NCBI GenBank assembly: GCA_030656575.1
Contig: JAUSPO010000177.1
Location: 1-38,931, forward strand
Origin: Bacillota bacterium
Lineage (GTDB): Bacteria > Bacillota > Dethiobacteria > DTU022 > UBA8154
Length of the DNA stretch: 38,931 nucleotides
Direction of reading: 5' to 3'
Positions 12,786 through 27,391 of the stretch are shown in pieces (position 1 is the stretch's first letter; the number at the start of each line of letters is the position of its first letter). The position numbers and the translations under genes are program-made. The notes under the pieces are model-generated. The model had not been told where the DNA came from, made no database searches, and was given only the letters and a program-made list of their open reading frames with translations.

Positions 12786-12822
12786 AGGAAGCAAAAAAAC
12801 CGTTCCCCTGCTTCCTTTTTTT
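12786..12822 (+). terminator. Rho-independent terminator of tepA-ylzJ-oxidoreductase
   Basis: AGGAAGC (12786-12792) pairs with GCTTCCT (12810-12816) and is followed by a run of seven T residues. It separates the convergent plus-strand operon from the minus-strand molybdenum operon. Confidence 0.85.
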
Positions 12823-14215
12823 ATTCTGACTCCTGTCTCCTTACTTCTGAATAGTTTCTATATTTCCGAAGGTCTTCAGGGGTATCAATATCTACCAATA
12901 CCCCTGAAGACTTTGTTTCTATGGCAAATATTTCATTTTCCGGAATAGATGAGAATACTTGCTTTCCTCCTTCGTCTCCCTCTAAATCCATTAACAAAGG
13001 CCATATGCGACGATCAAATAAGACCGGGTTTCCCCGTCTTCCCTCAAACAAAGGGAATGTAAGTAAATTTAGCTTATCAGCATAATTTTTAATTAATGTA
13101 TCATATACTTCTGCAGGTATAAAAGGCTGGTCAGCCAGGGTAAAAATAATTCCCTGTGCGCCGGAATGGACAGCAGTGATGCCAGTTTTTAAAGATGAAG
13201 ATATTCCCTGATCAAAATGGTGATTTGTTACAACCTTAACTTTCGAGTCATAAAACGTTTTATGAGAGATAAAACTTTTAGGCCTCGTCACAACAATTAC
13301 TTCATCTACCCCTGATCCAAGTACATTTTTCAAAGAATGCTCAAATATGGTTTCTTCTTTTATTTTAACAGTTAATTTATCCATCCCCATACGATTGGAT
13401 AACCCTGCAGCAAGAATTACACAGGAAACAAAAGGGAAAAATGATTTCTTAGAGAGATCGAAGACAAATTTCAGGGCAGCTGTTTGCTTTGCCGCGGTAA
13501 ATAGGAAGCGCTCCGCCAAAGGCTCTCCAATAAACTTTTCCCCTATACTCTTAATTAGATTTGTCTCCTTAGTAAGTTCAACCTTATTTACAATAGGGAT
13601 AATTCTTGCTTGGGGAGACATATTATGTCCACGTTTTATCATATACTTTAAGCATTTTATTAAATGATCGACACCTAACGGCTCTCCTGCTTCTGCTCCA
13701 GTTATTTTTGACAAAATCTCAGGTCTGTGAACATCCATAGGACCCACAGCTTTCCCAATAGCATCAATACCCAGAACGGGAAGGATCAGACTTGAATCAG
13801 GTGGGAGAACAGGCTCATAAGAAGCATAGCCTTTAATCGGTCTGCCAGCAGAACCATCGGCTTCAACAAGGAGGTACGAGGCAATTCCACTTTCAAAAAT
13901 CTTTTTCACCCAGGATATTTCTATCCCATTTAACTTATTTTCGGGAAGAAGAGAACTGCCCAGGGCAATAAGATCATGCTTTTTTAATAATTCACCCGCT
14001 TCAATAATGGCTTTTTTTAGATCAGATTTAATAACACAGTGAATCCCGGCAGGTTTGTATATTTTCGTAGTAGTAGTGAGAATGACTTTTTTTTGTGAAC
14101 CTGCCAACTCATGTGCCAGGCGGTTAAGAAGAGTTGATTTTCCTCCTGCTCCATAAGCTGAGATAATTTCTCTTTCCTTGAGTTCCAGGCTATCTGCCAG
14201 GGATGAAGGGTTCAT
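12821..14215 (-). CDS. YqeC-MocA fusion: molybdenum hydroxylase cofactor maturation protein
   Basis: Two proteins are fused. Residues 1 to about 255 match YqeC, the accessory protein linked to selenium-dependent molybdenum hydroxylases: SAYGAGGKSTLLNRLA with a P-loop-like GAGGKST at 22-28, TTTTKIY at 47-53 and VEADGSAGRPIKGY. Residues about 263-455 are a MobA/MocA-type nucleotidyltransferase with VILAAGLSNRMGMDK (266-280) and FTLADQPF, which adds CMP to molybdopterin (molybdenum cytosine dinucleotide cofactor). It is the last gene of an operon with a molybdopterin-binding protein, XdhC and a ModE-like regulator. GAGGG precedes the ATG. The expected client is the Hcr-like enzyme encoded just upstream. 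Confidence 0.87.
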   Translation of the reverse strand: MNPSSLADSLELKEREIISAYGAGGKSTLLNRLAHELAGSQKKVILTTTTKIYKPAGIHCVIKSDLKKAIIEAGELLKKHDLIALGSSLLPENKLNGIEISWVKKIFESGIASYLLVEADGSAGRPIKGYASYEPVLPPDSSLILPVLGIDAIGKAVGPMDVHRPEILSKITGAEAGEPLGVDHLIKCLKYMIKRGHNMSPQARIIPIVNKVELTKETNLIKSIGEKFIGEPLAERFLFTAAKQTAALKFVFDLSKKSFFPFVSCVILAAGLSNRMGMDKLTVKIKEETIFEHSLKNVLGSGVDEVIVVTRPKSFISHKTFYDSKVKVVTNHHFDQGISSSLKTGITAVHSGAQGIIFTLADQPFIPAEVYDTLIKNYADKLNLLTFPLFEGRRGNPVLFDRRIWPLLMDLEGDEGGKQVFSSIPENEIFAIETKSSGVLVDIDTPEDLRKYRNYSEVRRQESE

Positions 14216-14233: not shown

Positions 14234-14572
14234 TTATTTTAAAAAATGTTTATCAAATGTTTTCCGCAGTGCTTCCCCAGCTTCATGGCGAAATTCGCTA
14301 AACCTGATTGCAAACTCTTTTCCTTCTTCAGTCAGGACAGACCCGCCACCCGAAGTGCCTCCAGCTGTTTTAACCAGCAGGGGAAAGCCTAATTTTCTTT
14401 CTAGGTCATCTATAAGTTTCCATGCCTGGCTGTAAGACATATTAATCTCTGCTGCTGCCATGCGCAAAGAACCAGTACGTTCAATCCTTTGCAGTATATC
14501 ACAGGGACCGTCTCCAAAAATTTTTTGACCATTCTTTTCTACCCAAATTTTATAATTAAGGGAAAAGGTCAT
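14234..14572 (-). CDS. ModE-like winged-helix transcriptional regulator
   Basis: The 112-residue protein consists of one LysR/ModE-type winged helix, with ILQRIERTGSLRMAAAEIN, MSYSQAWKLIDDLERKLGFPL and the glycine-rich TAGGTSGGGSVLTEEG wing. This matches the N-terminal DNA-binding domain of ModE. The C-terminal molybdate-binding MOP domains are absent, as in many single-domain homologues. It lies inside the molybdenum-cofactor operon, and a ModE-box-like palindrome heads that operon (16496-16519), so autoregulation is likely. How molybdenum status would be sensed without MOP domains is unclear. GAGGGGG precedes the ATG. Confidence 0.85.
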   Translation of the reverse strand: MTFSLNYKIWVEKNGQKIFGDGPCDILQRIERTGSLRMAAAEINMSYSQAWKLIDDLERKLGFPLLVKTAGGTSGGGSVLTEEGKEFAIRFSEFRHEAGEALRKTFDKHFLK

Positions 14573-14626: not shown

Positions 14627-15424
14627 TTAAAGTTTCCCTGAAATCTTTCCTTTATTTTTTACTGCAATAATCTGACTTAATATACTAACAGATATCTCTT
14701 CCGGCGTTTTTGCGCCAATACCCAGACCTATAGGAGCATATACCTCCTTCAACTTGTCCTCAGAAAAACCCTTGTTTAATAAATTTTGATATACAGTTTG
14801 CACTTTCTTTTGACTGCCGATCATTCCTATATAACGCGCTTTTGAGTTTAAAGTTTTTTCCAATGCTTTTTCGTCATAAGAATGGCCCCGTGTAACAATA
14901 ACAAGGTAGGTATTTTCATTTATTTTAGCTTCTTGAAGCAAGTTTTCAATATTGCCCAACAGACATTCATCTGCGGTGGGGAATCTCTCTTTGTTACAAA
15001 AATCTTCTCTGTCATCAATTACTATTACTAGAAAATTGAGTATTTTTGCCATTAAGGCAAGAGGTTGGGCAATATGCCCTGCACCAATGATTAACATGGT
15101 CTCCGGTGAAACAATGACATCCATAAAAACTGTTGTCTCCCCCCCACAGATCATTCCCAATCCAGCTGCTGTATCATTTGTCAGGTTGTAGGTGCTGTAT
15201 TTTGGAGTATTTAGTCTAATAGCTTCTACAGCTTCATTGATTACTGTTGCTTCAACCAACCCGCCGCCTATAGTACCAACCGTATTACCCTGAAGATCCA
15301 CAAGCATTTTAAAGCCTGGTTTTCCAGGCGATGATCCTTTGGTTTCTACTACAGTAACAAGAGCTGCAGGTTCTCCCTTTTCCATCATTTCCAGTAATGT
15401 CTCATAGATTTCCCTCTGCATCAT
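14627..15424 (-). CDS. XdhC/CoxI family molybdenum enzyme maturation protein
   Basis: XdhC proteins deliver sulfurated molybdenum cofactor to xanthine dehydrogenase-type enzymes. The N-terminal XdhC_CoxI domain shows ETKGSSPGKPGFKMLV (about 27-42), TIGGGLVEA and MICGG (91-95); the C-terminal Rossmann-like domain shows LIIGAGHIAQPLA (111-123) and ends with YAPIGLGIGAKTPEEIS. Length 265 fits the family. Two adjacent ATG codons (15424 and 15421) are possible starts, with AAAGGAG in the end of the upstream gene. It works with the YqeC-MocA fusion to mature the hydroxylase encoded upstream. Confidence 0.92.
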   Translation of the reverse strand: MMQREIYETLLEMMEKGEPAALVTVVETKGSSPGKPGFKMLVDLQGNTVGTIGGGLVEATVINEAVEAIRLNTPKYSTYNLTNDTAAGLGMICGGETTVFMDVIVSPETMLIIGAGHIAQPLALMAKILNFLVIVIDDREDFCNKERFPTADECLLGNIENLLQEAKINENTYLVIVTRGHSYDEKALEKTLNSKARYIGMIGSQKKVQTVYQNLLNKGFSEDKLKEVYAPIGLGIGAKTPEEISVSILSQIIAVKNKGKISGKL

Positions 15425-15428
15425 CTAT

Positions 15429-16463
15429 CTAGACCACTCCTTTGCCAAAAGAACAGTTTGGATATAAGCACTTTTCACAACGCCGGCAAAGTCCACCGTG
15501 TCCGAGGCCTGCAATATCCCCTATTTCTAAGATTTCGCCAGCCAGTATACGGGGAAGGATAATATCCAGGATCGTTGTACGAAAGTACATGGCACAGGCG
15601 GGAATGCCTAGAATTGGAGTTTTCCCCTTGTAAGCCAGAAGAAACATTGCCCCTGGCAGGGCGGGTGCACCGTACTTGATTACCCTGGCACCTGCTTTTT
15701 TTATGCCTGAAGGAGTAACATCATCAGGATCTACAGACATACCGCCAGTGACGATTATAATTTCGCAATTTCTGGACAATAAATCTTCCACACTATTAGC
15801 AATTATCTCCGCATTATCTCCCGCATAGAGTATCTCCGGGGGTTCTAAACCGAAAAAAGATGCTTTCTCGTTAAGGACAGGAGCAAAACCATCTTGAACA
15901 CGCCCCTCTATCACCTCTCTTCCGGTTATTACCACACCTATTTTTTGTTTACCATAAGGTAAAATCCTTAAAAGCGCAGGTCCACTTTTGCAAATCTCTT
16001 CTACCTGCCTTACTACCTCCTCATTAACAACAAGGGGTATTACTTTTGCTCCTGCCACTTTTTCTTCTATCTCCACAGGAGTATTGGTATGCAAGGTAGC
16101 TATGACCACATCGGGAAGCAGGTTAATTTTATTCAGCCTTTCTACATCAACCTTGAGAAGGCCTCTCTGCAGCGCAGTAAGATCCAACCTACCTTCCGAA
16201 GGGCCGTTTAAAGTCAGTCCATCTCCCTGTAAAGCCCTGGCTATTCGTAGTCCTGCCTCATCTTCGTGCAGTTCCCCTGGCTCCAGTTCTAAGGAATAAA
16301 TGTGATTTTTTCCGAGATTAAGCAGGATTTCCACATCTTCCTCTCTGATCAGATGGCCTTTTTTAAAAAGCGCCCCTTTGAATGCACCTTTTTCGATCTT
16401 AGTGATATCGTGACAAATAACCTTTCCAACAGATTTTTCGGTTTCAAGAAAAAGCGCTTTCAT
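15429..16463 (-). CDS. Molybdopterin-binding (MoeA/CinA-fold) protein with C-terminal cysteine cluster
   Basis: The C-terminal half is a MoaB/Mog/MoeA-type molybdopterin-binding domain, with GVVITGREVIEGRVQDGF, IIVTGGMSVDPDDVTP and LPGAMFLLAYKGKTPILGIP. The N-terminal half lacks the usual MoeA domain 1 architecture. The last 30 residues carry four cysteines in CRRCEKCLYPNC, suggesting a metal or Fe-S site, a known variant next to molybdenum hydroxylases. I place the start at the ATG at 16463, preceded by AAGGAG at 11 bases; the longer reading from a GTG at 16496 has no site and would overlap the operator. It is the first gene of the molybdenum operon. Molybdate insertion or cofactor storage is the likely role. 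Confidence 0.82.
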   Translation of the reverse strand: MKALFLETEKSVGKVICHDITKIEKGAFKGALFKKGHLIREEDVEILLNLGKNHIYSLELEPGELHEDEAGLRIARALQGDGLTLNGPSEGRLDLTALQRGLLKVDVERLNKINLLPDVVIATLHTNTPVEIEEKVAGAKVIPLVVNEEVVRQVEEICKSGPALLRILPYGKQKIGVVITGREVIEGRVQDGFAPVLNEKASFFGLEPPEILYAGDNAEIIANSVEDLLSRNCEIIIVTGGMSVDPDDVTPSGIKKAGARVIKYGAPALPGAMFLLAYKGKTPILGIPACAMYFRTTILDIILPRILAGEILEIGDIAGLGHGGLCRRCEKCLYPNCSFGKGVV

Positions 16464-16495
16464 TTTTGCGTCCACTCCTTTAAAGTAAATAGGCA

Positions 16496-16519
16496 CGTTA
16501 TACTTTTAAAAGTATAACG
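16496..16519. promoter_or_regulatory. Perfect 24-bp palindrome, ModE-box-like operator
   Basis: CGTTATAC-N8-GTATAACG is a perfect inverted repeat with the inner TTTTAAAA also palindromic. It ends 33 bp upstream of the first gene of the molybdenum operon and contains TATACT, which could be the -10 box. From memory, the E. coli modA operator is also 24 bp long with CGTTATAT and ATAACG ends. The operon encodes a ModE-like protein, so repression by that protein is the simplest reading. An attenuator or the tetR terminator are alternatives, but no U run follows. Confidence 0.65.
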
Positions 16520-16533
16520 AAGAACAAATTATT

Positions 16534-17103
16534 TCATTGTTTTAATATTCCATTCAAGATCATATCTGAATATAATTCCGCTATTTCTTCAGGCTTTAAG
16601 CGCCCATTGGGTTTATACCAATGATATAACCAGTTACACATACCGATTATAGCATAAACAGTTGGAATAACATCAATTTTTTTTAAGATATTTTTCTCTA
16701 TACCCTCCTCAAAGACACTTGCTATCTTCTTTTCATAAATTTTTCGTCTGACATTTATAGATTCTAAATTGTCAGGTGTAAGATGAGCCTTTTCGGTAAA
16801 GAAAATTGAAATGTTTGGAGCCTCATCAAAAACGGCCATAATATGATTATAAATAAATTTTCGAATTCGTTCTTCAACTGTCATTTTCTGTTCCATTAAT
16901 TTATTTAATCGAAATTCTGCAGTTGTCATAGTTTGGTCGAATATTTCATAAAGTATTTCCTCTTTACTGGAAATATAGTAATATAAAGCGGCTTTTGTAA
17001 CATTTAAAACATCCGCGATATCTTGAACGCTTGTCGCTGAATAACTCTTTTCATTAAATAGATTTACAGATGCTGTTATTATTTCTTGTTTGGTCAGGCC
17101 CAT
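16534..17103 (-). CDS. TetR family transcriptional regulator
   Basis: The N-terminal TetR helix-turn-helix covers about residues 8-50 (SATSVQDIADVLNVTKAALY). The C-terminal ligand domain ends with WYKPNGRLKPEEIAELYSDM, a tail typical of the KstR2/FadR-like groups that sense acyl- or aromatic-CoA esters. I place the start at the ATG at 17103, with GGAGG 6 bases upstream and the usual TetR beginning; a longer reading to 17187 adds an untypical 28 residues. It sits between the hydroxylase operon and the molybdenum operon, and is the prime candidate to bind the paired palindromes at 23000-23013 and 27346-27359. The ligand might be a CoA ester made by the adjacent ligase. Confidence 0.9.
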   Translation of the reverse strand: MGLTKQEIITASVNLFNEKSYSATSVQDIADVLNVTKAALYYYISSKEEILYEIFDQTMTTAEFRLNKLMEQKMTVEERIRKFIYNHIMAVFDEAPNISIFFTEKAHLTPDNLESINVRRKIYEKKIASVFEEGIEKNILKKIDVIPTVYAIIGMCNWLYHWYKPNGRLKPEEIAELYSDMILNGILKQ

Positions 17104-17521
17104 TCTTCCCTCCATAAATTCGTATAAAGAAATGGTGAATGTTTTGGACTGCAATAATTCGTGCATAAACTTCCTGATCACTGCCACAGTAAATTACCTC
17201 GGAACTTATATTCGCGACTTTTTATCTTAAATCCTTCTTTAACTTTTTAACTTAAAACAAATTATGAATTAAGCTTCTAAAATATTTTTTTAGAAAAATA
17301 TCCACACTACCCCACAAAAGCAGACCGGCATTAAAGCCGCAGCGCATTAAAGCTTCTCTTAAAATGAAAAGACTAATTATTGATGAGGATGCAGAATGGG
17401 CAGGGTGAGTGTGAATATCCTCATATTGGTTCCAAGATGGACATTCAGGAGCATGAAAACCTTACCCTGCACATTATTAAATGACTACATCCCCTCTTTT
17501 TTTATCACAAACCTGCTAATA
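17104..17521. other. 418-bp intergenic region with two interleaved inverted repeats
   Basis: No gene is supported between tetR and the large hydroxylase subunit. ATGAGGAT (17383-17390) is complementary to ATCCTCAT (17417-17424). GCAGGGTGAG (17400-17409) is complementary with one mismatch to CTTACCCTGC (17461-17470). The two pairings interleave, so they would form a pseudoknot or alternative structures. GCTTTAATGC occurs twice on the minus strand near 17330-17355. I see no clear terminator with a U run after the hydroxylase operon and no firm promoter for tetR. Confidence 0.4.
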
Positions 17522-19903
17522 CTATATTTTTCCTAGAGCCCGCAAAACCTTTTCGGGAGTAATAGGTAAACTATAAAAACGCACTCCGATAGCATCATGA
17601 ACGGCATTCCCTATGGCTCCCAAAATTCCAGCAACAGACCCTTCACCAACCTCCTTCGCTCCGAAAGGTCCGCTTGGTTCAATCGTTGCAACCAATTCAT
17701 CCACAGATTCAGGTGTATCAAGAGATATAGGAAGCTGATAAGAAAGAAATGATGGATTGAAACATTGTCCATTTTCCAAAAAAACCTCTTCCGAGAGAGC
17801 TTGACCTGCTCCCATAGAAACGCACCCATGCACTTGCCCTTCAACGATTGTTTTGTTCAGAGGAAAACCACAATCATGAAAAGTAACTGCTTTTACTAAG
17901 GTGACCTTTCCTGTTAAAGTATCCACCTCAACTTCAGCTGCTTGGGCTGCAAACCCATATGCACTGGTAAACAATCCTTTACCCTTGGCGAGACTGGGAT
18001 AACGATCTGTCTGGGGATACCCTTTATAAAAACCTTTTCCTATAATAGGATTTCCATCCCTATTTAAAACGCTGGCTTGGATCGCCTGTTGAAAAGAAAT
18101 TGATTTTTCGGGGTTATCTTTTAAAAAGATCTTCTTCTCTAAGGTATCTAATTTATCAATATCATCTACCCCAAGAATCTCAGCAGCACCCTCTAAAACC
18201 TGGCGCTTTGCATCGGCTGCAGCCAGTTTAACTGCGTTACCAGTAACAAGAGCGGTGCCGCTTAAAAAACTTCCTAAATCAATAGGGCATAGATCAGTGT
18301 CGCCTGCAACAACTTGTATATCTTCCATTCCAATTCCCAGTTCTTCAGCTAAAACCTGCGACAAAGTTGTGAAACTCCCCTGTCCTATATCCTGGGCACC
18401 TGTAAATAAGGTGGCAGAACCATCATCATGCATTTTAACAATAGCAGCAGAGGCAAAAGGGTAATACATGGCACCGCTGAACATTGAACAAAGCGAAATC
18501 CCCACACCACGTCTGTATCTCCTATTTCCCTCTTTTGCTCTAAATTGCATTCTTTTGTTTTCCCAATCAATTGCTTTAGCAGCACCTTCAATACACTCTG
18601 TTAAGCCACAGCTATTTAATTTATCACCGTTAGGAAGTACATCCCCTTCATGCCTTACATTTTTACGCATAATATCAATAGGATCTATGCCAAGATCCCT
18701 TGCTATAAGGTCAAGATGTGAATCAATGGAAAATCTTATCTGAGGAGCACCGTGACCTCGTTGTGGTCCACGAATACCGTTATTTGTATAAATAGAAAAA
18801 CCTTCATAACTATAGTTTTCTATATTATAAATTGGAAAACTAAAGCCATGGCAAAGAAAAATTACAACAGGGCCGCTTCCCCTATACCCACCATTATCTG
18901 CTATTGCTTTTACTTCTTGAGCTAAGATAGTTCCGTCTTTTCTAATTCCAGTTTTAATTTTAATAATCATTGGATGGCGCTGGCGAGTAGTCATAAATAC
19001 TTCCTCTCGCTCCAATTCGATCTTTACCGGCTTACCTGTTTTAATAGAAAGATAAGCTGCACAATATTCATAAGAAAAAAGGTCAATCTTCCCGCCAAAA
19101 GCTCCACCTACAAAAGTATGATGCACTCTTATTTTGCTTGCCGGCATTTCAAGAACTTTACTTAAAAAAAATCTCTTTAAAAATATCCCCATGGTGGACA
19201 ACCAAACATTAAGTTTCTGTTCGATAGGGTCATAACTGGCAACAGCCGCATGGGGTTCCATTTGACAATGTGCAGTAGCCTTTAATTCAAAACTATCCTC
19301 ACGTACATAATCAGACTCATGAAAACCCTTTACCACGTCTCCAAAACTTACAGAAGTATGACCACTTAAATTATTTACCTTAATCTCCGACTCATAAGAC
19401 CCTTTCCTTTGAGCAACCCCCCATTGTTCCCAGGCAGAAGTGCCTTCCAGTTGTTCATCATGAATCACAGGTGCATTATGCTTCATTGCTTCTTCAGCAG
19501 TAAATACGCCGGGAAGAATTTCATATTCTACTTTTATTAAAGATAATGCTTTTTCGGCTATTGATTCACTTTCAGCAGCTACCGCAGCTACTTCATCTCC
19601 AATATATCTAACTTTGTCAACGGCAAGAGGTCGCTCATCAGCAGGATATCGGGGTGTATCAACAAATGCATATCGAACATCACTTAAATCCTGGCCGGTT
19701 ATGATTTCTTTAACTCCCGGTAATTTCTTAGCTTCACTAGTATCTATATTTAAAATTCTCGCATGAGGATATGGACTTCTAAGGATTTTTCCATAAAGCA
19801 TATCAGGCAGCTTCACATCAACAGTATAAATTGCTTTACCTGTAGATTTTGCTGGTCCATCCACTCTTGGGATTCCTTTACCAACGATATTATAATTAGT
19901 CAT
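17522..19903 (-). CDS. hcrA: Molybdenum hydroxylase large subunit, 4-hydroxybenzoyl-CoA reductase alpha-like
   Basis: This is the molybdopterin-binding catalytic subunit of the xanthine oxidase family. It begins with IVGKGIPRVDGPAKSTGKA and shows VGGAFGGK (265-272), GIRGPQRGHGAPQ (376-388) and, near the C-terminus, GAKEVGEG, whose Glu (about 754) is the expected active-site base. Length 793 fits the family (about 750-800). It is the last gene of paaK-orf64-hcrB-hcrC-hcrA. The Hcr assignment rests on the partner FAD subunit with its 4Fe-4S insertion and on the CoA ligase; by itself the subunit would only be called xanthine dehydrogenase family. AGGTGG precedes the ATG. A hydroxylase acting on a heterocycle or another acyl-CoA remains possible. 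Confidence 0.85.
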   Translation of the reverse strand: MTNYNIVGKGIPRVDGPAKSTGKAIYTVDVKLPDMLYGKILRSPYPHARILNIDTSEAKKLPGVKEIITGQDLSDVRYAFVDTPRYPADERPLAVDKVRYIGDEVAAVAAESESIAEKALSLIKVEYEILPGVFTAEEAMKHNAPVIHDEQLEGTSAWEQWGVAQRKGSYESEIKVNNLSGHTSVSFGDVVKGFHESDYVREDSFELKATAHCQMEPHAAVASYDPIEQKLNVWLSTMGIFLKRFFLSKVLEMPASKIRVHHTFVGGAFGGKIDLFSYEYCAAYLSIKTGKPVKIELEREEVFMTTRQRHPMIIKIKTGIRKDGTILAQEVKAIADNGGYRGSGPVVIFLCHGFSFPIYNIENYSYEGFSIYTNNGIRGPQRGHGAPQIRFSIDSHLDLIARDLGIDPIDIMRKNVRHEGDVLPNGDKLNSCGLTECIEGAAKAIDWENKRMQFRAKEGNRRYRRGVGISLCSMFSGAMYYPFASAAIVKMHDDGSATLFTGAQDIGQGSFTTLSQVLAEELGIGMEDIQVVAGDTDLCPIDLGSFLSGTALVTGNAVKLAAADAKRQVLEGAAEILGVDDIDKLDTLEKKIFLKDNPEKSISFQQAIQASVLNRDGNPIIGKGFYKGYPQTDRYPSLAKGKGLFTSAYGFAAQAAEVEVDTLTGKVTLVKAVTFHDCGFPLNKTIVEGQVHGCVSMGAGQALSEEVFLENGQCFNPSFLSYQLPISLDTPESVDELVATIEPSGPFGAKEVGEGSVAGILGAIGNAVHDAIGVRFYSLPITPEKVLRALGKI

Positions 19904-19923
19904 GTAAATACACCACCTATTAA

Positions 19924-20385
19924 TTAAGATTTAGCAAGAGACTTAATTGCATTGATAATTTGCAAATACCCAGTACACCGGCAAATATTTCCTGAAATGG
20001 CCTCCTTAATTTCATCTATCTGTGGATTAGGATTTTGTTCCAATAAATTTTTAGTTACTAATATCATCCCTGGTGTACAAAAACCACACTGAATTGCACC
20101 TTTTTCATTGAAAGCTATTTGTATTGGATGTAAATGACCTTCCTTGGCTACACTCTCAATTGTATCTATAGATTTACCATCTGCTTTAACCGCCAATAAA
20201 GAGCAGGAACTAACCGGTTTTCCATTTATTAGTACTGTGCATGCTCCACATTCTCCCTGATTGCACCCTTTTTTTGTACCGGTTAACCCTAAATCATCGC
20301 GTAATACATCTAACAGAGTTTGGTTAACATTCACTAACAAGTTTTTTTCTTCACCGTTTAAAACTAATCGAATTGTTTTTTTCAT
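19924..20385 (-). CDS. hcrC: Molybdenum hydroxylase [2Fe-2S] subunit, HcrC-like
   Basis: The small electron-transfer subunit carries two [2Fe-2S] clusters. The plant-type ferredoxin half has Cys41, 46, 49 and 61 (GCNQGECGACTVLING...SSC); the C-terminal four-helix half has Cys100, 103, 135 and 137 (QCGFCTPGM and NICRCTGY). All eight ligands are present and the length of 153 is normal. It starts one base after the FAD subunit stop, so translation is coupled, and it sits between the FAD and molybdenum subunit genes, moving electrons between them. Confidence 0.93.
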   Translation of the reverse strand: MKKTIRLVLNGEEKNLLVNVNQTLLDVLRDDLGLTGTKKGCNQGECGACTVLINGKPVSSCSLLAVKADGKSIDTIESVAKEGHLHPIQIAFNEKGAIQCGFCTPGMILVTKNLLEQNPNPQIDEIKEAISGNICRCTGYLQIINAIKSLAKS

Positions 20386-20386
20386 T

Positions 20387-21373
20387 TTAAATACCTCCGA
20401 CTTCTCTTATTGCTTCTGAAATAATAATCTTAGCTACCTCTCGTTTATATCTTGGTGAAATAAGAGTAGTTTTAAATGGATAAATTTCTGTAACAGCAGC
20501 TTCTGCTGCATCAGAAATCAGATTAGCATTTAACTTTTTATTAAGAAGCATTCCTCTAACTTGCGCTGGTTCAACAGGTCCAGTGCCTGCGCCAGTAATA
20601 ATAATACGAGCGTCTCCACATCGCTTTTCTTCGTTAAATTGAATTGCGACAGAAACTCCGATCAGTGGAAAATCAATAGACTCCCGCATCCGATACTTAT
20701 GATAACAACTTTTTAAGTTATTCTGTGGAATTGGTATCTCTATCTCGGTTAAAATTTCCTTACTTCCACTTAAAATTACATTAGGAAAACGGCCGTCACC
20801 GGAATAAAAATTCTCCAGGGGTATTACCCTCTCTTCATTAGCCCCAACTAATTTAACTCTTGCCCCATAAGATATTAGAACCGGGGGGATATCAGCTGAA
20901 AAGGTAGAAACACAGCTGTTCTTCTTTTTTGCTACATGACAAATGTTGCCGCCTACCTTAAAACATTCTTCACGGGAAGACCGCCAGAAAAGTGATTGAT
21001 TATAGAAACGACACCTTGTATTTAAGCAAATATTCCCACCAATCGTTGCTATAGAACGAAGAAGTGGAGAACCAACGTCCCATGCAGCCTTCCTTAAGGC
21101 AGGAAACTTTTCCTTAATCAATGTATAATTTATAATATCGTCGAGTGTACTCATCGCGCCTATGATAACAGCATCGTCTTTTTTCGTTATTTTTTTTAAA
21201 GATGGAATTTTATCTAAACTAATAAGATATCTGGAATTTTGCAACCTTTGCTTTAACGCTACTACAAGGTCAGTCCCACCTGCAATAATTGTGCAGCTAT
21301 TATTTTTTGCCAGTTGATTGATCGCTTCTTCTAAACTTTCAGGTTCAAAATATTCAAACTCCGGCAACCTCAA
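20387..21373 (-). CDS. hcrB: Molybdenum hydroxylase FAD subunit with 4Fe-4S insertion, HcrB-like
   Basis: The FAD-binding subunit shows IIAGGTDLVVALKQ (29-42) and TIGGNIC (110-116). It contains an insertion with Cys121, Cys137, Cys145 and Cys154 (TRCRFYNQS, REECFK, NICHVAKK, NSCVS). As I recall, Thauera 4-hydroxybenzoyl-CoA reductase binds an extra [4Fe-4S] cluster through Cys122, 138, 146 and 155, exactly the same spacing. Ordinary xanthine dehydrogenase FAD subunits lack this. In HBCR the cluster lets low-potential electrons run backward from ferredoxin to remove a phenolic hydroxyl from the CoA ester, giving benzoyl-CoA. The start is TTG behind AAGGAGG. The substrate is inferred, not proven. 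Confidence 0.88.
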   Translation of the reverse strand: MRLPEFEYFEPESLEEAINQLAKNNSCTIIAGGTDLVVALKQRLQNSRYLISLDKIPSLKKITKKDDAVIIGAMSTLDDIINYTLIKEKFPALRKAAWDVGSPLLRSIATIGGNICLNTRCRFYNQSLFWRSSREECFKVGGNICHVAKKKNSCVSTFSADIPPVLISYGARVKLVGANEERVIPLENFYSGDGRFPNVILSGSKEILTEIEIPIPQNNLKSCYHKYRMRESIDFPLIGVSVAIQFNEEKRCGDARIIITGAGTGPVEPAQVRGMLLNKKLNANLISDAAEAAVTEIYPFKTTLISPRYKREVAKIIISEAIREVGGI

Positions 21374-21415
21374 TGTTAACCCTCCTTTTTACATATAATA
21401 TTATTAATAGATTAC

Positions 21416-21610
21416 TTATACTTTATAGTGGAAAAGCTGTTCAAACTCTAGATCAAGGTCACTCGTTATCTGCCATATAACACCAAGGGCTCGACGTGCA
21501 TTATAGCAAACGGCAGGTAAATCTTCCACCTCACATAATTCCTTTAATAAATTATATACCTGTTGAACTTTTTCCTCTACCAGTTTGGGATTTTCTTGAA
21601 AAGATAGCAT
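21416..21610 (-). CDS. Small protein of unknown function in the hydroxylase operon
   Basis: A 64-residue protein that I do not recognise. It is predicted to be all-helical and acidic, with two cysteines, and has a distinctive centre, AVCYNARRALGVIWQITSDL. It has GGGAGG 8 bases before its ATG and lies snugly between paaK (28 bp) and hcrB (42 bp), so it is a real cotranscribed gene. A role as a small subunit, chaperone or regulator of the ligase or reductase is possible, but only position supports it. Confidence 0.65.
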   Translation of the reverse strand: MLSFQENPKLVEEKVQQVYNLLKELCEVEDLPAVCYNARRALGVIWQITSDLDLEFEQLFHYKV

Positions 21611-21638
21611 TATTAAAGCCTCCCTTGAGCTATTTTTT

Positions 21639-22973
21639 TTATTGTTTATTACGCAAATCTTGAAGCCTGCGTGATTTTAATTCGAACTTTGGTAAAGCCC
21701 CTGGTTCTACTATCTCAACATAAAAAGATAAACGATGAGCATTATATAATTTTTCTGAGATAATCTTTTGCAAATACTGATTTTTCTCTGGGAAATATTC
21801 TGGAAGCGGCTCTATTTTTACCTTAACCTGATCAATGTCTTTTTCTGTATAGATTATTATCTGAAACTCACTAACTTCATTGAATTCGCGTACTATATCT
21901 TCAACAGCAGAAGGGAAAATATTTACTCCTTTAACAAGTTTCATGTCGTCAGCTCTACCGAGAATTCCACCCTTATAAAGGTCAAAAGTTCTGCCACAGC
22001 TGCAAAAACTACTTTCAACACGCTCAACCAGGTCTCCGGTTCTATACCGAATAAGTGGTAGAGCTCCTCTTCCAAAGGATGTCAATACCAGTTCCCCTCT
22101 CTGACCATAACCCAAATTCTCTGTTGTCCTGGGATCTATAACTTCCTGGATGTAATGATCCTCAAGGATATGTAACCCACCGCTTTGCTTAGAGCATTCG
22201 TAACACGTTGAACCTCCTGTTTCTGACATCCCCGGGAAATCCCCTACTTTCGCACCCCATGAATCTTCCAACATTTTTTTTGTACCAGGAATACTAGCAC
22301 CCGGTTCACCCGCATGAATTAAAAACTTAACTTTAGAGTCTTTTGCCAAATCAACTCCCATTTCGTTGGCTACCTGGGCAAGCCTAATGGCATAGGTAGG
22401 AGTGGAAACAAGTACAGTTACTCCCATCTCCATTATCTTATTAATACGGTCTTGGCTTGTCATACCCCCTGTGGGTAAAGTCAGTGCCCCCAATCTTTCA
22501 CAAGCATAATGCGCTAGCCAGAATCCAATGAAGTTACCGTATCCAGAAGCGACTAAGCATATATCAGTTTCCCTGACGCCAAAAGCGTACATCCCATAAC
22601 ACCACATTTCCGATCCCCACTCCCAGTCCTTCCAGCCATCTAAAATACGTAAAGGACCACTTCCAGAAGTGCCAGATGTCTGATGATACCTCACTGATTG
22701 TTCAGCAGTAACGGCCATAGCATCCCCGAAAAGGGGATTATCAGATTGGGATTGGCTCAGTTCCTTTCTGGTTAAGAAAGGAATCTTTTTGATGTCTTCC
22801 AGGGAAGTGATGCCATCCGGCTTGAAAGCTACCTCATCTAGCTTTCTTTTCCATAAAGGGCTATTGTTGTAAGCCCACCTTACAAGTACCTTTAACTTTT
22901 TCAACTGAAGAGCTTCTAAATTTTCTCTAGACATTAACTCGGTTTTTGAATTCCAGTAATTTGAAGTACTCAT
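21639..22973 (-). CDS. Phenylacetate-CoA ligase family (PaaK-like) acid-CoA ligase
   Basis: This AMP-forming ligase activates an aromatic or other carboxylic acid to its CoA ester using ATP. Motifs seen are the P-loop HQTSGTSGSGPLR (97-109), GMSETGGSTCYECS, GRGALPLIRYRTGDLVE and the C-terminal ILGRADDMKLVKGVNIFPSAVED hinge. SSFCSCGRT gives the paired cysteines common in this family. The ATG at 22973 is preferred (GGGAGG 5-6 bases upstream) over a TTG at 22988. It is the first gene of the operon that ends with the HcrA-like subunit, 27 bases downstream of an operator palindrome. The expected product is the CoA ester reduced by the Hcr-like enzyme; 4-hydroxybenzoate or a related acid is a reasonable but unproven substrate. 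Confidence 0.88.
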   Translation of the reverse strand: MSTSNYWNSKTELMSRENLEALQLKKLKVLVRWAYNNSPLWKRKLDEVAFKPDGITSLEDIKKIPFLTRKELSQSQSDNPLFGDAMAVTAEQSVRYHQTSGTSGSGPLRILDGWKDWEWGSEMWCYGMYAFGVRETDICLVASGYGNFIGFWLAHYACERLGALTLPTGGMTSQDRINKIMEMGVTVLVSTPTYAIRLAQVANEMGVDLAKDSKVKFLIHAGEPGASIPGTKKMLEDSWGAKVGDFPGMSETGGSTCYECSKQSGGLHILEDHYIQEVIDPRTTENLGYGQRGELVLTSFGRGALPLIRYRTGDLVERVESSFCSCGRTFDLYKGGILGRADDMKLVKGVNIFPSAVEDIVREFNEVSEFQIIIYTEKDIDQVKVKIEPLPEYFPEKNQYLQKIISEKLYNAHRLSFYVEIVEPGALPKFELKSRRLQDLRNKQ

Positions 22974-22999: not shown

Positions 23000-23045
23000 A
23001 CTAACCGTTTAGTATAATTATATTCAATAAATTTTCCAACGTCAA
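23000..23045 (-). promoter_or_regulatory. Sigma-A promoter with TetR-type operator for the paaK-hcr operon
   Basis: On the minus strand TTGACG (23045-23040) is followed after exactly 17 bases by TATAAT (23022-23017). Three bases later comes the 14-bp near-palindrome ACTAACCGTTTAGT (plus strand 23000-23013), covering the expected transcription start. The same layout is found at 27346-27391 ahead of the TRAP operon. The leader to the paaK ATG is only about 35 bases. Confidence 0.8.
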
Positions 23046-23110: not shown

Positions 23111-24062
23111 TTATTTATATTGTTGATTATATTTGTTTGAAAGTTCATTAATAACCTGCAGGGCTTCCTGGCCTGGCAAGTTTTTACTTTTCATTTCTTG
23201 AATAAAGTCCTCCTGGATAGGCTTTACTTGTTCTATCCATTTGTTTAGCTCTTCATCTGAAAGGGAAATAATCTCTATTTCATTTTTTTCTATAGCCCAC
23301 TGCAGCGCTATTTCATTTTGTTTGTCCCAAAGATCCATAACTACTTCTTCAAAGATTTTTTCATTTACTTCCATTATTATTTCCTGCAGTTCTGGAGAAA
23401 AAGAATTCCATATATCCAGGTTAATGTTAAAGAAGAAAAGAGTGTTATATAAAAAAGGAGTATAAGTTAGATATTCTACTAATTCCCCCTGATTCCATTC
23501 TTTCAGGACTTCGGGAGGAGACAGGTTACCTTTTACTACACCTGACAACAATGCTTCATACGTATCAGATTGAGGCATTGATATGGGAACTGCTCCAAGA
23601 GACTTAAGTATTCTGGCATTTAAACCAGTTCCCCTTATCTCCATTCCTTTAAGATCAAATAAATTTCTAACAGGCCTTATAGTAAACAAATGACACGGAC
23701 CAGTGGCAAAAACCATCATTAGTTTTGAATCTTGGACTTCTCGTGGGTTTAATAGTTGAATTCCTTCCCAAGCAACTTTGCTTGCTACTTTTGAGTTGTT
23801 GTAAATAACTCCCGGCAATTCAAATGACTCAAGTAGAGGAAAGCGTCCTCTATTATTAAGCAAAACAGGAAATGCCTAACTCAGCAATATTTATAACTAC
23901 TCCATCATATATTTCCTCAGACTTAAGTAGAATTTCATCTGGATAGCTGGTTACTGTTAACTGCCCGTTAGTCGATACTTCAATAGCTTCAGCCCAAGCT
24001 CGAATTAATTCTGTCTCAACAGGGTGATCGGAAAAAAACACCCCCTTAATATTTTTTAACAA
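23111..24062 (-). pseudogene. Frameshifted TRAP substrate-binding protein (dctP-like)
   Basis: Two reading frames together resemble the intact DctP at 26031-27101. The upstream piece (to about 23856) runs from HPVETELIRAWAEA to GISCFA and stops; the downstream piece resumes with NNRGRFPLLESFELPG in another frame. Aligning with SCYAYTRGRFPVLE shows that one extra A in GCTTAATAATAG (about 23853-23864) breaks the frame; removing it restores a SCFAYNRGR reading. The 5' end is also damaged: no signal peptide or ATG precedes the mature part and an in-frame TAA lies just upstream. It is the last gene of the TRAP operon. The remaining protein is full length at the C-terminus, so decay looks recent, or the extra base is a sequencing error. 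Confidence 0.8.
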
Positions 24063-24124: not shown

Positions 24125-25441
24125 TTATAATAAATAATTTGGTAAAAACAAAGCTATTTGTGGGAATACAATTAAAATAGCACCACATACAATAAGAGCT
24201 ATTAAAAAAGGCCATATACCTTGGAAGATAACTTGTAATGGAATATCTTTAGTTATTCCTTTAACCACGTAAACGTTAATCCCAACTGGTGGGGTAATAC
24301 ATCCCATTGTAACAGCAACGACCATCATTACGCCAAACCATATAGGATCATAACCAAGAGTTTGGACAGCTACTGGATAAAAAATAGGAACAGTAAGAAG
24401 CATTAAAGGTAAGGAATCGATAAACGTACCAAGTAATAAATATATAAGTAAAATTACCCCTACTACAACTACAGGTGGTAATGGAAGTACTTCAACCCAG
24501 CCTGCCAACTCAAAAGGAATACGGGTTATTGCCATAAAACGTCCAAAAATAGTTGCACCGGTTACAAGAAATAGTATCATAGCTGATGTTCTAGTAGTAT
24601 CGGAAAGGGACTTTTTAATTTTTTCCCAGTTTAAACTCTTTTGAAGTAATGTTACTAGTAAAACACCAGCTGCCCCAACACCCCCTGCCTCTGTGGGAGT
24701 AAACCATCCAGCAAAAAGACCGCCTAGAGAAATAATAAATATAATTATAACTTCTATTAAACCACTATTTGGAAGAGACATTACAATTTCTTTAAATTTC
24801 GGGTGTGGTCCTGGTGCTGCAGGAGCCAGAGCAGGATTATGGAAAGTAACAATAAAAATCGCAGCTATATACAAAAATGTTAGAAGAATACCAGGGACAA
24901 TACCTGCTATGAATAATTTTGCAATTGATTGTTCTGTTGCAATTCCGTAAAGTACCAAAATAACACTTGGAGGAATCATTATTCCTAAAGCTCCTCCAGC
25001 AGCAACACAACCAGTCGATAGTTTATCACTATAATTGTATCGCTTCATCTCAGGAATAGCAATCGAGCCCATCGTAGCAGTCGTAGCTGTACTTGAGCCA
25101 CAAATAGCACCAAAAATAGCACAAGCAACTTGAGTTGCCATAGCTAATCCCCCTGGGAAGCGACCTACTAACTTATAAGCAAACGAGTAGACCTTGGTTC
25201 CTATTCCTGCATGGTATGCGAGGAAACCCATTAATACAAACATTGGTATTACACTAAGTGAATAGGATGTAAAAGTAGTAAAAATATCCGAGGCTACTAT
25301 TCTATTAGCAGCTAAAAATGTTGTTACATATCCATATCCGAAATACCCTACTATAATCATAGAAATGGAGATTGGTATTTTAACGAGGAAGCATATAAAA
25401 AGAACTATTATGCCTAACATTCCTATAACAATAAGGTTCAC
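24125..25441 (-). CDS. dctM: TRAP transporter large permease DctM
   Basis: This is the large membrane subunit of a tripartite ATP-independent periplasmic (TRAP) transporter, driving solute uptake with the sodium or proton gradient. It has about 12 hydrophobic segments in 438 residues, with family motifs FGAICGSSTATTATMGSIAIPEM, GALGIMIPPSVILVLYG, WFTPTEAGGVGA and GCITPPVGINVYVVKG. The GTG start overlaps the dctQ stop by 4 bases, so translation is coupled. The substrate is not readable from this subunit; the operon link to the ligase/reductase suggests an aromatic or related acid. Confidence 0.93.
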   Translation of the reverse strand: MNLIVIGMLGIIVLFICFLVKIPISISMIIVGYFGYGYVTTFLAANRIVASDIFTTFTSYSLSVIPMFVLMGFLAYHAGIGTKVYSFAYKLVGRFPGGLAMATQVACAIFGAICGSSTATTATMGSIAIPEMKRYNYSDKLSTGCVAAGGALGIMIPPSVILVLYGIATEQSIAKLFIAGIVPGILLTFLYIAAIFIVTFHNPALAPAAPGPHPKFKEIVMSLPNSGLIEVIIIFIISLGGLFAGWFTPTEAGGVGAAGVLLVTLLQKSLNWEKIKKSLSDTTRTSAMILFLVTGATIFGRFMAITRIPFELAGWVEVLPLPPVVVVGVILLIYLLLGTFIDSLPLMLLTVPIFYPVAVQTLGYDPIWFGVMMVVAVTMGCITPPVGINVYVVKGITKDIPLQVIFQGIWPFLIALIVCGAILIVFPQIALFLPNYLL

Positions 25442-25923
25442 TTTCGACTCACCTTCTTAATAGATTCAACTAGGTTTCCATACAGTACCAGGCTGTATCC
25501 CACAAAGCCAAGTGCGATTATATATGCAAAATAATGCATAGGTACTTTTGTTGTCATTCCTATATACCCTCCAGCAAACATCCTGTTACCATACAAAATT
25601 AACATTCTAACAGTCATAAGTAAAAATAATAAAATAAGTATATTTACAATAATATCTACTTTCATTTGGTTTTTTTTTGAGAGTCGCTCTACTAAGATAG
25701 TTACAGCGACATGGCCTTCCTGAGCTGCGCAATAAGAAAGAGCTAGACTGATTGCGGAAGCCATTAAGAAACCCACCCATTCATAACAACCACCAAAAGG
25801 GCGGCCAAAAAAGCGAAAAATTACATTCCCCACGACTAATGCAACAATAATCAAAAAAATGGTCCTGGCTATTCGATCGAAGCTTTCAGTAATCTTGATG
25901 GTTAATTTAGGAATTAAATTCAT
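25438..25923 (-). CDS. dctQ: TRAP transporter small permease DctQ
   Basis: The small TRAP membrane subunit has four hydrophobic segments in 161 residues (about 17-37, 48-66, 85-108 and 126-148) and the DctQ-type features FFGRPFGGCYEWVGFLMA and SYCAAQEGHVAVTILVERL. It pairs with DctM, whose start overlaps its stop. AGGGAG precedes the ATG. It lies 107 bp after dctP, with a strong hairpin in between. Confidence 0.9.
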   Translation of the reverse strand: MNLIPKLTIKITESFDRIARTIFLIIVALVVGNVIFRFFGRPFGGCYEWVGFLMASAISLALSYCAAQEGHVAVTILVERLSKKNQMKVDIIVNILILLFLLMTVRMLILYGNRMFAGGYIGMTTKVPMHYFAYIIALGFVGYSLVLYGNLVESIKKVSRK

Positions 25924-27101: not shown

Positions 27102-27345
27102 GTTTTTTCCCCCTTTTTTTAAATAATTTTTAACTCTTTAAATGCATTTTCTCTAAAGATCATTAATTACATAATTATAGTCACCCCCAGTCCTATTAGC
27201 ATTTTCAAAATTATACGAAATTAAGTCGGCAAGTAAAAAGGTAAGGGAAAGACTCCAATAAGAAAATATGAGAAAAATCTAAATCTTAATGATATCTTGG
27301 ACTGGGTTTATTGTTTAAGTAATTAATATAAAATAAATAAATTAT

Positions 27346-27391
27346 ACTTACCGGTTAGTATAATTATAGAAGAATCATTCAGAAAAGTCAA
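27346..27391 (-). promoter_or_regulatory. Sigma-A promoter with TetR-type operator for the TRAP operon
   Basis: On the minus strand TTGACT (27391-27386), 17 bases and TATAAT (27368-27363) form a near-ideal promoter. Three bases later lies the near-palindrome ACTTACCGGTTAGT (plus strand 27346-27359). The symmetry extends to ATTATACT...AGTATAAT, giving 24 bp with a single mismatched pair. The layout is identical to that at 23000-23045. The leader from here to the dctP ATG (27102-27345) has no gene; CCCAGTCC (27186-27193) and GGACTGGG (27299-27306) could pair over 105 bases. Confidence 0.82.

What the first reader, a model, noticed from the sequence alone, without database searches (positions are those of the whole stretch)
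17522..22973. Hcr-like aromatic CoA-ester reductase operon with the diagnostic 4Fe-4S insertion
The FAD subunit has cysteines at 121, 137, 145 and 154, the same 16-8-9 spacing that I recall for the extra 4Fe-4S cluster in Thauera HcrB. Together with a PaaK-type ligase in the same operon this points to reductive dehydroxylation of an aromatic CoA ester in an anaerobic spore-former, rather than xanthine dehydrogenase as an automatic annotation would say.
Basis: partly seen in the sequence, partly recalled or inferred. Interest (0 to 1): 0.7.

Follow-up and report, generated by a model that had tools for sequence, protein, structure and literature searches.

The report
Hcr-like aryl-CoA reductase, distinct clade
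An anaerobe of a spore-forming lineage carries a co-regulated gene set that most likely imports an aromatic acid, attaches coenzyme A to it and then strips a group off its ring with a molybdenum enzyme; it resembles 4-hydroxybenzoyl-CoA reductase but belongs to a separate, uncharacterised branch, and the iron-sulfur insertion that suggested the identity turns out to occur across branches.

Summary
The FAD subunit (20387-21373, minus strand) has Cys121/137/145/154, which align without a gap with Cys122/138/146/155 of Thauera HcrB. The 16-8-9 spacing holds in 66 of 73 distinct insertion-bearing homologues. A 94.9-pLDDT model matches 1rm6_B at TM 0.94-0.95 and 1.5 A over the whole chain. The enzyme is not a purine hydroxylase, and lies inside a supported group with HcrA. 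But it is not HcrABC: all three subunits miss the NCBI equivalog cut-offs, and the catalytic subunit falls outside the branch that holds Thauera HcrA. The insertion is not diagnostic. Bacillota HcrA equivalogs that pass the cut-off lack it, and so does the same genome's closest HcrA relative. Catalytic-subunit and FAD-subunit trees conflict, which suggests that FAD subunits have been exchanged. The reductase, a PaaK-type ligase, a conserved 64-aa protein and a TRAP transporter appear to be one regulon: a palindrome placed identically after two promoters is found nowhere else in the 3-Mb genome. A class I benzoyl-CoA pathway is encoded elsewhere. Best reading: a new variant of aryl-CoA reductase with unknown substrate, possibly not 4-hydroxybenzoyl-CoA.

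The parts
17522..19903 (-). Molybdenum (MCD-type) catalytic subunit, 793 aa
   Evidence: Pfam MoCoBD_1, MoCoBD_2 and Ald_Xan_dh_C; best solved relative 1rm6_A, 453 bits; TIGR03194 694 bits, below the cut-off of 994.55
19924..20385 (-). [2Fe-2S]x2 subunit, 153 aa
   Evidence: Pfam Fer2 and Fer2_2; best solved relative 1rm6_C
20387..21373 (-). FAD subunit with a four-cysteine insertion (Cys121, 137, 145, 154), 328 aa, TTG start
   Evidence: Pfam FAD_binding_5 and CO_deh_flav_C; cysteines align with HcrB 122/138/146/155; model pLDDT 94.9, TM 0.94-0.95 to 1rm6_B
21416..21610 (-). Conserved 64-aa protein of unknown function between ligase and FAD subunit
   Evidence: tblastn homologues at 52-78% identity beside the ligase in every locus that has the ligase orthologue, and nowhere else among the loci; weak DUF6052 match, below cut-off
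21639..22973 (-). PaaK-type aryl-CoA ligase
   Evidence: AMP-binding_C_2; best solved relatives PaaK 4r1l and 2-hydroxyisobutyryl-CoA synthetase 6hdw; phenylacetate-specific TIGR02155 missed, 269 vs 646 bits
22999..23014 (.). Palindromic operator TACTAACCGTTTAGTA, 2 nt after the -10 of the ligase promoter
   Evidence: core expected 0.09 times in the window; only two sites with up to 1 mismatch in the whole genome, both in this window
23017..23045 (-). Promoter TTGACG-17-TATAAT of the ligase-reductase operon
   Evidence: 11 of 12 consensus bases, best in the region; the total number of promoter-like matches there is not above shuffles
24125..25441 (-). TRAP transporter large permease DctM
   Evidence: TIGR00786, 323 bits, over the 268 cut-off
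25438..25923 (-). TRAP transporter small permease DctQ (by position and homologues)
   Evidence: conserved between DctP and DctM in L049
26031..27101 (-). TRAP substrate-binding protein DctP
   Evidence: Homologues beside the reductase in L049 and behind the same operator in G004 (82% identity)
27345..27360 (.). Second operator, TACTTACCGGTTAGTA, 2 nt after the -10 of TTGACT-17-TATAAT (27391-27363) upstream of dctP
16534..17187 (-). TetR regulator (TetR_C_24, FadR-like), proposed to bind both operators
   Evidence: TetR homologues beside the ligase or reductase in L049, L054, L056, L057, L058 and G016 C32; binding not shown
15429..16496 (-). MoCF_biosynth-domain (MoeA/MogA-like) protein
   Evidence: same neighbourhood in G010 and G016
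14627..15424 (-). XdhC-type chaperone for the sulfurated Mo cofactor
   Evidence: Pfam XdhC_C and XdhC_CoxI
14234..14572 (-). ModE-type DNA-binding domain protein
   Evidence: TIGR00637, 57.8 bits, below its 98.5 cut-off
12821..14215 (-). YqeC-MocA fusion (Se-cofactor marker plus Mo cofactor cytidylyltransferase)
   Evidence: TIGR03172 147 vs 73 cut-off; TIGR03310 176.5 vs 186 cut-off

Best explanation
An uncharacterised lineage of aryl-CoA reductase in the xanthine oxidase family. A TRAP transporter imports an aromatic acid and the PaaK-type ligase turns it into its CoA thioester. The three-subunit Mo enzyme then reductively removes a ring substituent (most likely a hydroxyl) so that the product enters the class I benzoyl-CoA pathway encoded elsewhere in the genome. 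Electrons from a low-potential donor (ferredoxin in Thauera) would enter at the [4Fe-4S] of the FAD subunit and pass by FAD and two [2Fe-2S] clusters to the Mo cofactor. A TetR repressor, probably released by the CoA ester, would control the transporter promoter and the ligase-reductase promoter through the shared palindrome. Shown by computation: gene content, cysteine insertion and fold, placement outside XDH and outside the HcrA branch, shared promoter-operator architecture, benzoyl-CoA pathway in the genome. Inferred: reaction direction, substrate, electron donor, the identity of the repressor.
For: All three subunits have 1rm6 (HcrABC) as closest solved relative. Catalytic subunits of window and HcrA share a 36-row group with 100/99 support that excludes E. 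coli XdhA, CoxL and QorL. The active-site Glu (res 754) and the RGHG motif (res 382-385) are shared with HcrA, where XDHs have RGYG/RAYG. The FAD-subunit model superposes on HcrB with the insertion. The operator occurs in the whole genome only before the ligase and before dctP, in identical register behind both -10 boxes; the reversed control pattern gives 0 in this genome. The same operator precedes the ligase in G002, L049, L054, L057, and a dctP orthologue in G004. BzdQ 442, Had 479 and OAH 568 bits, all over cut-off, on one contig of the genome. A PaaK-type ligase is assigned to 4-hydroxybenzoate in Desulfatiglans anilini (PMC6114531).
Against: The ligase orthologue is not found in 5 of the 9 genomes of the family that carry the reductase (three of those loci are cut by a contig end), and in G016 ligase, small protein and TetR sit on another contig beside a second enzyme without the insertion. 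Presence of the reductase does not correlate with benzoyl-CoA reductase across the family (6 of 9 vs 7 of 14, p = 0.67). FAD subunits with this insertion also occur in lineages usually regarded as aerobic (Acidobacteriota, Gemmatimonadota, Rhodobacteraceae), so the insertion alone does not prove a reductive anaerobic role. No substrate evidence exists.
Confidence: 0.5

Rival explanations
1. It is simply this organism's 4-hydroxybenzoyl-CoA reductase, diverged in sequence: the ligase makes 4-hydroxybenzoyl-CoA and the enzyme dehydroxylates it to benzoyl-CoA.
For: Closest solved relative HcrABC; benzoyl-CoA pathway present; PaaK-type 4-hydroxybenzoate-CoA ligase assigned in D. anilini; RGHG and Glu shared with HcrA.
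Against: All three subunits miss the 4-HBCR equivalog cut-offs. Outside the HcrA branch. The same genome has a closer HcrA relative on C131, 817 bits, with its own AMP ligase. The Thermincola MAG G265 holds both a window-type enzyme and a 1166-bit HcrA equivalog beside two UbiD-like genes, which argues for division of labour.
Confidence: 0.23
2. It is a reductive deaminase (4-aminobenzoyl-CoA to benzoyl-CoA) or acts specifically on another substituted aroyl-CoA such as protocatechuyl-CoA or a hydroxycinnamoyl-CoA.
For: In D. anilini Hcr-like proteins are induced only by aniline or 4-aminobenzoate and are proposed for this step (PMC7500099); spore-forming Desulfotomaculum gibsoniae degrades catechol via protocatechuate (PMC4148979).
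Against: No aniline-specific gene was noticed in the window; nothing in the sequence distinguishes these substrates.
Confidence: 0.12
3. It is an oxidative hydroxylase of a (hetero)aromatic CoA thioester, as furoyl-CoA dehydrogenase is (from general knowledge), and the [4Fe-4S] serves as exit path for electrons.
For: Most of the family is oxidative; insertion-bearing FAD subunits also occur in lineages usually regarded as aerobic; ligase plus Mo hydroxylase is also the furoate arrangement (recalled, not tested).
Against: The only characterised insertion-bearing enzyme works reductively; the host has a benzoyl-CoA reductase of anaerobes.
Confidence: 0.12
4. Xanthine or nicotinate dehydrogenase, as automatic annotation might say.
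For: XDH-family Pfam domains; XdhA models score 560-563 bits.
Against: XdhA and XdhB cut-offs missed by a wide margin; E. coli XdhA in a separate 100/100 group; 3hrd nicotinate dehydrogenase scores 235 vs 453 bits for HcrA; co-regulated ligase.
Confidence: 0.02

Closest known systems
4-hydroxybenzoyl-CoA reductase HcrABC of Thauera aromatica (PDB 1rm6, 1sb3)
   Same: Three subunits, four-cysteine [4Fe-4S] insertion with equivalent cysteines, FAD-subunit fold (TM 0.94-0.95), active-site Glu and RGHG
   Different: Catalytic subunit 38% identical and outside the HcrA branch; misses all three equivalog cut-offs; paired with a PaaK-type ligase, a 64-aa protein, TRAP and TetR
Bacillota HcrA equivalogs over the TIGR03194 cut-off (L137-L142)
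   Same: Same superfamily group, RGHG, in Bacillota; one lies beside TRAP and UbiD-like genes
   Different: FAD subunit has no insertion; catalytic subunit only 41-42% identical to the window's; both types coexist in one genome (G265)
Urolithin C dehydroxylase Ucdh of Enterocloster bolteae (PMC12771579)
   Same: Reductive dehydroxylation by a xanthine-oxidase-family enzyme, transporter in the cluster, XdhC helps maturation
Hcr-like proteins of the ani and hcr clusters of Desulfatiglans anilini (PMC7500099, PMC6114531)
   Same: Hcr-like enzymes in a strict anaerobe, PaaK-type ligase for 4-hydroxybenzoate
   Different: Proposed substrate 4-aminobenzoyl-CoA; sequences not compared here

Membership tests
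4-hydroxybenzoyl-CoA reductase (HcrABC) | Scores over the NCBI equivalog cut-offs TIGR03194/03195/03193 | tested here: not met
   694 vs 994.55, 258.5 vs 404.55, 190.4 vs 257.8 bits
4-hydroxybenzoyl-CoA reductase (HcrABC) | Catalytic subunit inside the branch of characterised HcrA | tested here: not met
   HcrA branch of 17 rows with 100/99 support excludes the window clade; both sit in a 36-row group with 100/99
4-hydroxybenzoyl-CoA reductase (HcrABC) | [4Fe-4S] insertion with four cysteines in the FAD subunit | tested here: met
   but shown not to be diagnostic
4-hydroxybenzoyl-CoA reductase (HcrABC) | Active-site Glu and RGHG motif of the catalytic subunit | tested here: met
4-hydroxybenzoyl-CoA reductase (HcrABC) | Ferredoxin-dependent dehydroxylation of 4-hydroxybenzoyl-CoA | not testable with these tools
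   Needs enzyme assay
Xanthine oxidase family (molybdenum hydroxylases) | Ald_Xan_dh_C plus MoCoBD domains, FAD_binding_5, Fer2/Fer2_2 | tested here: met
Xanthine dehydrogenase XdhABC | Equivalog cut-offs and grouping with E. coli XdhA | tested here: not met
   563 vs 916 and 181 vs 310 bits; separate group in the tree
Nicotinate dehydrogenase | Grouping with the Eubacterium barkeri enzyme in a tree | not tested
   No full sequence in the tree; only a score comparison, 3hrd 235 vs HcrA 453 bits
PaaK-type aryl-CoA ligase | AMP-binding_C_2 domain and PaaK relatives of known structure | tested here: met
Phenylacetate-CoA ligase PaaK (specific) | TIGR02155 cut-off | tested here: not met
   269.5 vs 646.3 bits
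Selenium-dependent molybdenum hydroxylase | SelD, YqeB and YqeC in the genome, YqeC near the enzyme | tested here: met
   SelD 375 vs 125, YqeB 360 vs 220, YqeC 147 vs 73 bits; markers only, and several other Mo enzymes in the genome could be the clients
Selenium-dependent molybdenum hydroxylase | Selenium ligand on Mo | not testable with these tools
   Needs metal analysis or spectroscopy

The most novel reading that the evidence does not exclude
Probability: 0.13. Interest if true: 0.65.

Novelty: new variant of a known kind. Interest (0 to 1): 0.42.

Why it matters
The four-cysteine insertion is easy to take as the signature of 4-hydroxybenzoyl-CoA reductase; here it marks an electron-entry module that is not tied to one catalytic lineage, so annotations resting on it are unsafe, and Bacillota HcrA equivalogs are missed if it is required. 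If the branch works as proposed, it adds an experimentally accessible reductive enzyme to a family with very few known reductive members, with a self-contained regulon (importer, ligase, reductase, TetR operator) that makes its substrate directly testable.

Tried and rejected
Ligase-reductase linkage as a universal rule: rejected, the ligase orthologue is missing from 5 of 9 family genomes. Co-occurrence with benzoyl-CoA reductase as substrate evidence: no correlation. YqeB co-occurrence: 8 of 9 vs 6 of 14, one-sided p = 0.036, but 0.18 among genomes at least 90% complete and chosen after the fact, so only a hint. Loss of the TQ glutamine as a clade mark: rejected, 9 Met and 4 Gln within the clade; the SR to SG/SA/SC change is uniform (13 of 13) but its meaning is unknown. 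Plasmid searches gave only distant homologues, best 40% identity. An operator-like site in G014 lies inside a GTPase gene and was taken as chance.
Full report
WHAT IS THERE. All genes of interest are on the minus strand. From the upstream end: dctP, dctQ, dctM (27101 to 24125), a decayed second dctP, a PaaK-type ligase (22973-21639), a 64-aa protein (21610-21416), FAD subunit (21373-20387), [2Fe-2S] subunit (20385-19924), Mo subunit (19903-17522), TetR (17187-16534), a MoCF_biosynth protein, XdhC, a ModE-type protein and a YqeC-MocA fusion (to 12821). The block sits between housekeeping genes: pnp, dut, dpaA/dpaB, dapA and rnj on one side, a ClpP-like gene and ftsK on the other (pnp, dut and the ClpP-like gene named by eye from their sequence). 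In the related genome G016 the reductase and its maturation genes lie at the same site between rnj and the ClpP-like gene.

THE CYSTEINES. Cys121/137/145/154 align without a gap with Cys122/138/146/155 of Thauera HcrB (HcrB numbers follow from the printed alignment). Among 73 distinct insertion-bearing FAD subunits, 66 keep exactly 16-8-9. A model from a 74-sequence alignment has mean pLDDT 94.9, with the insertion at 92-93. Its best solved match is 1rm6_B (TM 0.94/0.95, 1.5 A, 328 columns); FAD subunits without the insertion follow at TM 0.85 or less by query length.

NOT A PURINE HYDROXYLASE, BUT NOT HCRABC EITHER. A careful tree of 49 catalytic subunits puts the window in a 36-row group with HcrA (100/99), away from E. 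coli XdhA. Inside that group Thauera HcrA sits in a 17-row branch (100/99) that excludes the window. The window's own branch holds Dethiobacter-like, Desulfotomaculum-like and Thermincola genomes, with Chloroflexota and Myxococcota relatives. Identity to HcrA is 38%, to the close branch members 71-87%. NCBI's 4-HBCR equivalog cut-offs are missed by all three subunits, and so are those for XDH. Nicotinate dehydrogenase could not be placed in the tree; it only scores lower than HcrA.

THE INSERTION IS NOT DIAGNOSTIC. A search of 299 Bacillota genomes found six with HcrA homologues over the TIGR03194 cut-off. In the five whose FAD subunit could be read (L137, L139-L142), it has no insertion. The window's own genome has its best HcrA match on contig C131 (817 bits), beside an AMP ligase, again without insertion, and a third ligase-plus-Mo-enzyme set on C151 beside a UbiD-type gene, also without. 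G265, the same contig as the Thermincola MAG locus L058, carries both a window-type enzyme and a 1166-bit HcrA equivalog. The catalytic-subunit data reject insertion-bearing enzymes as one clade (331.9 log units, p = 0.0006) and need at least five changes. The FAD-subunit tree, built with the insertion and flanking columns removed, keeps all 16 insertion-free FAD subunits together in 96% of bootstrap trees, and rejects the groupings of the catalytic tree (p = 0.009 and 0.008). The simplest explanation is that FAD subunits were exchanged between catalytic lineages. Shared functional constraint on FAD subunits, or limits of a 280-column alignment, could mimic this.

A REGULON. The ligase promoter (TTGACG-17-TATAAT) is followed after 2 nt by TACTAAACGGTTAGTA. 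The dctP promoter (TTGACT-17-TATAAT, read) is followed after 2 nt by TACTAACCGGTAAGTA. With one mismatch allowed these are the only two sites in the 2.99-Mb genome, and the reversed control pattern gives none there. The same palindrome, with at most one half-site mismatch, precedes the ligase in G002, L049, L054 and L057, the FAD subunit in L049 and L054, and an 82%-identical dctP in G004. A TetR protein with a FadR-like effector domain accompanies the set. TRAP uptake, ligation and reduction therefore appear to be one response to one acid. That the TetR protein binds these sites is inferred.

PATHWAY CONTEXT. The genome encodes a bzd-type class I benzoyl-CoA reductase (BzdQ 442 bits, cut-off 380), 6-hydroxycyclohexene-carbonyl-CoA dehydrogenase (479, cut-off 339) and the ring hydrolase OAH (568, cut-off 464) on contig C57, with another PaaK-type ligase. 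Across 23 genomes of the family the reductase is in 9, but its presence does not track with benzoyl-CoA reductase, so context supports an aromatic role without naming the substrate. Published precedents: 4-hydroxybenzoate-CoA ligase of PaaK type and candidate 4-aminobenzoyl-CoA reductases in Desulfatiglans anilini (PMC6114531, PMC7500099), and urolithin C dehydroxylase as second reductive family member, which uses NADH and no CoA ester (PMC12771579).

MECHANISM. Inferred by homology: low-potential electrons enter at the [4Fe-4S] cluster, pass FAD and two [2Fe-2S] clusters to the Mo centre, and the thioester stabilises the reduced ring while the substituent leaves. Conserved in the window: the active-site Glu and the RGHG motif shared with HcrA and the Bacillota equivalogs. 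Differing: an Arg found in 62 of 70 other sequences compared is Gly, Ala or Cys in all 13 of the clade, of unknown effect.

VERDICT. The reading 'Hcr-like aromatic CoA-ester reductase operon' is probably right as a functional class (about 0.85 over all reductive aryl-CoA readings), but not as membership in HcrABC; the 'diagnostic' argument fails, and the substrate is open.

Noticed in passing
window 23117-24026 (-): Decayed second copy of dctP: homology to intact DctP residues 50-354 in two frames, signal peptide missing, frameshift near 23855.
   Followed up: partly
window 21416-21610 (-): Conserved 64-aa protein always beside the ligase orthologue, weak similarity to DUF6052 (16 bits, cut-off 25).
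   Followed up: partly
G000 contig C103 (L036:7868-11702) and 11 related loci: A second, different cysteine insertion (TRCWYYRYP...C...C...YHA...C) in FAD subunits of another Mo-enzyme group (about 30% identity), in L036 beside corrinoid, pterin-binding and URO-D-type genes and a TRAP transporter; possibly linked to O-demethylation of methoxyaromatics.
   Followed up: partly
L085, L092, L068, L076, L112, L118, L120: Insertion-bearing enzymes of Acidobacteriota, Myxococcota and others whose catalytic subunit has Gln in place of the conserved active-site Glu.
   Followed up: no
window 12821-14215 (-); G000 C184, C171: YqeC fused to MocA in the locus; the genome also has YqeB and a SelD with one in-frame TGA (possible selenocysteine), the marker set of selenium-dependent molybdenum hydroxylases.
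   Followed up: partly
G016 contig C32 (L171:10075-19899, L175:544-4397): Ligase, small protein and TetR orthologues sit beside a second Mo enzyme (54% identity) without the insertion, with the same operator upstream of an HMGL/PYC-like gene.
   Followed up: partly
G002, G006, G007, G013, G014, G016, G018, G021: Full-length OAH-like proteins at 343-376 bits, below the OAH cut-off of 464 but far above ordinary hydratases; possibly a variant ring hydrolase.
   Followed up: no
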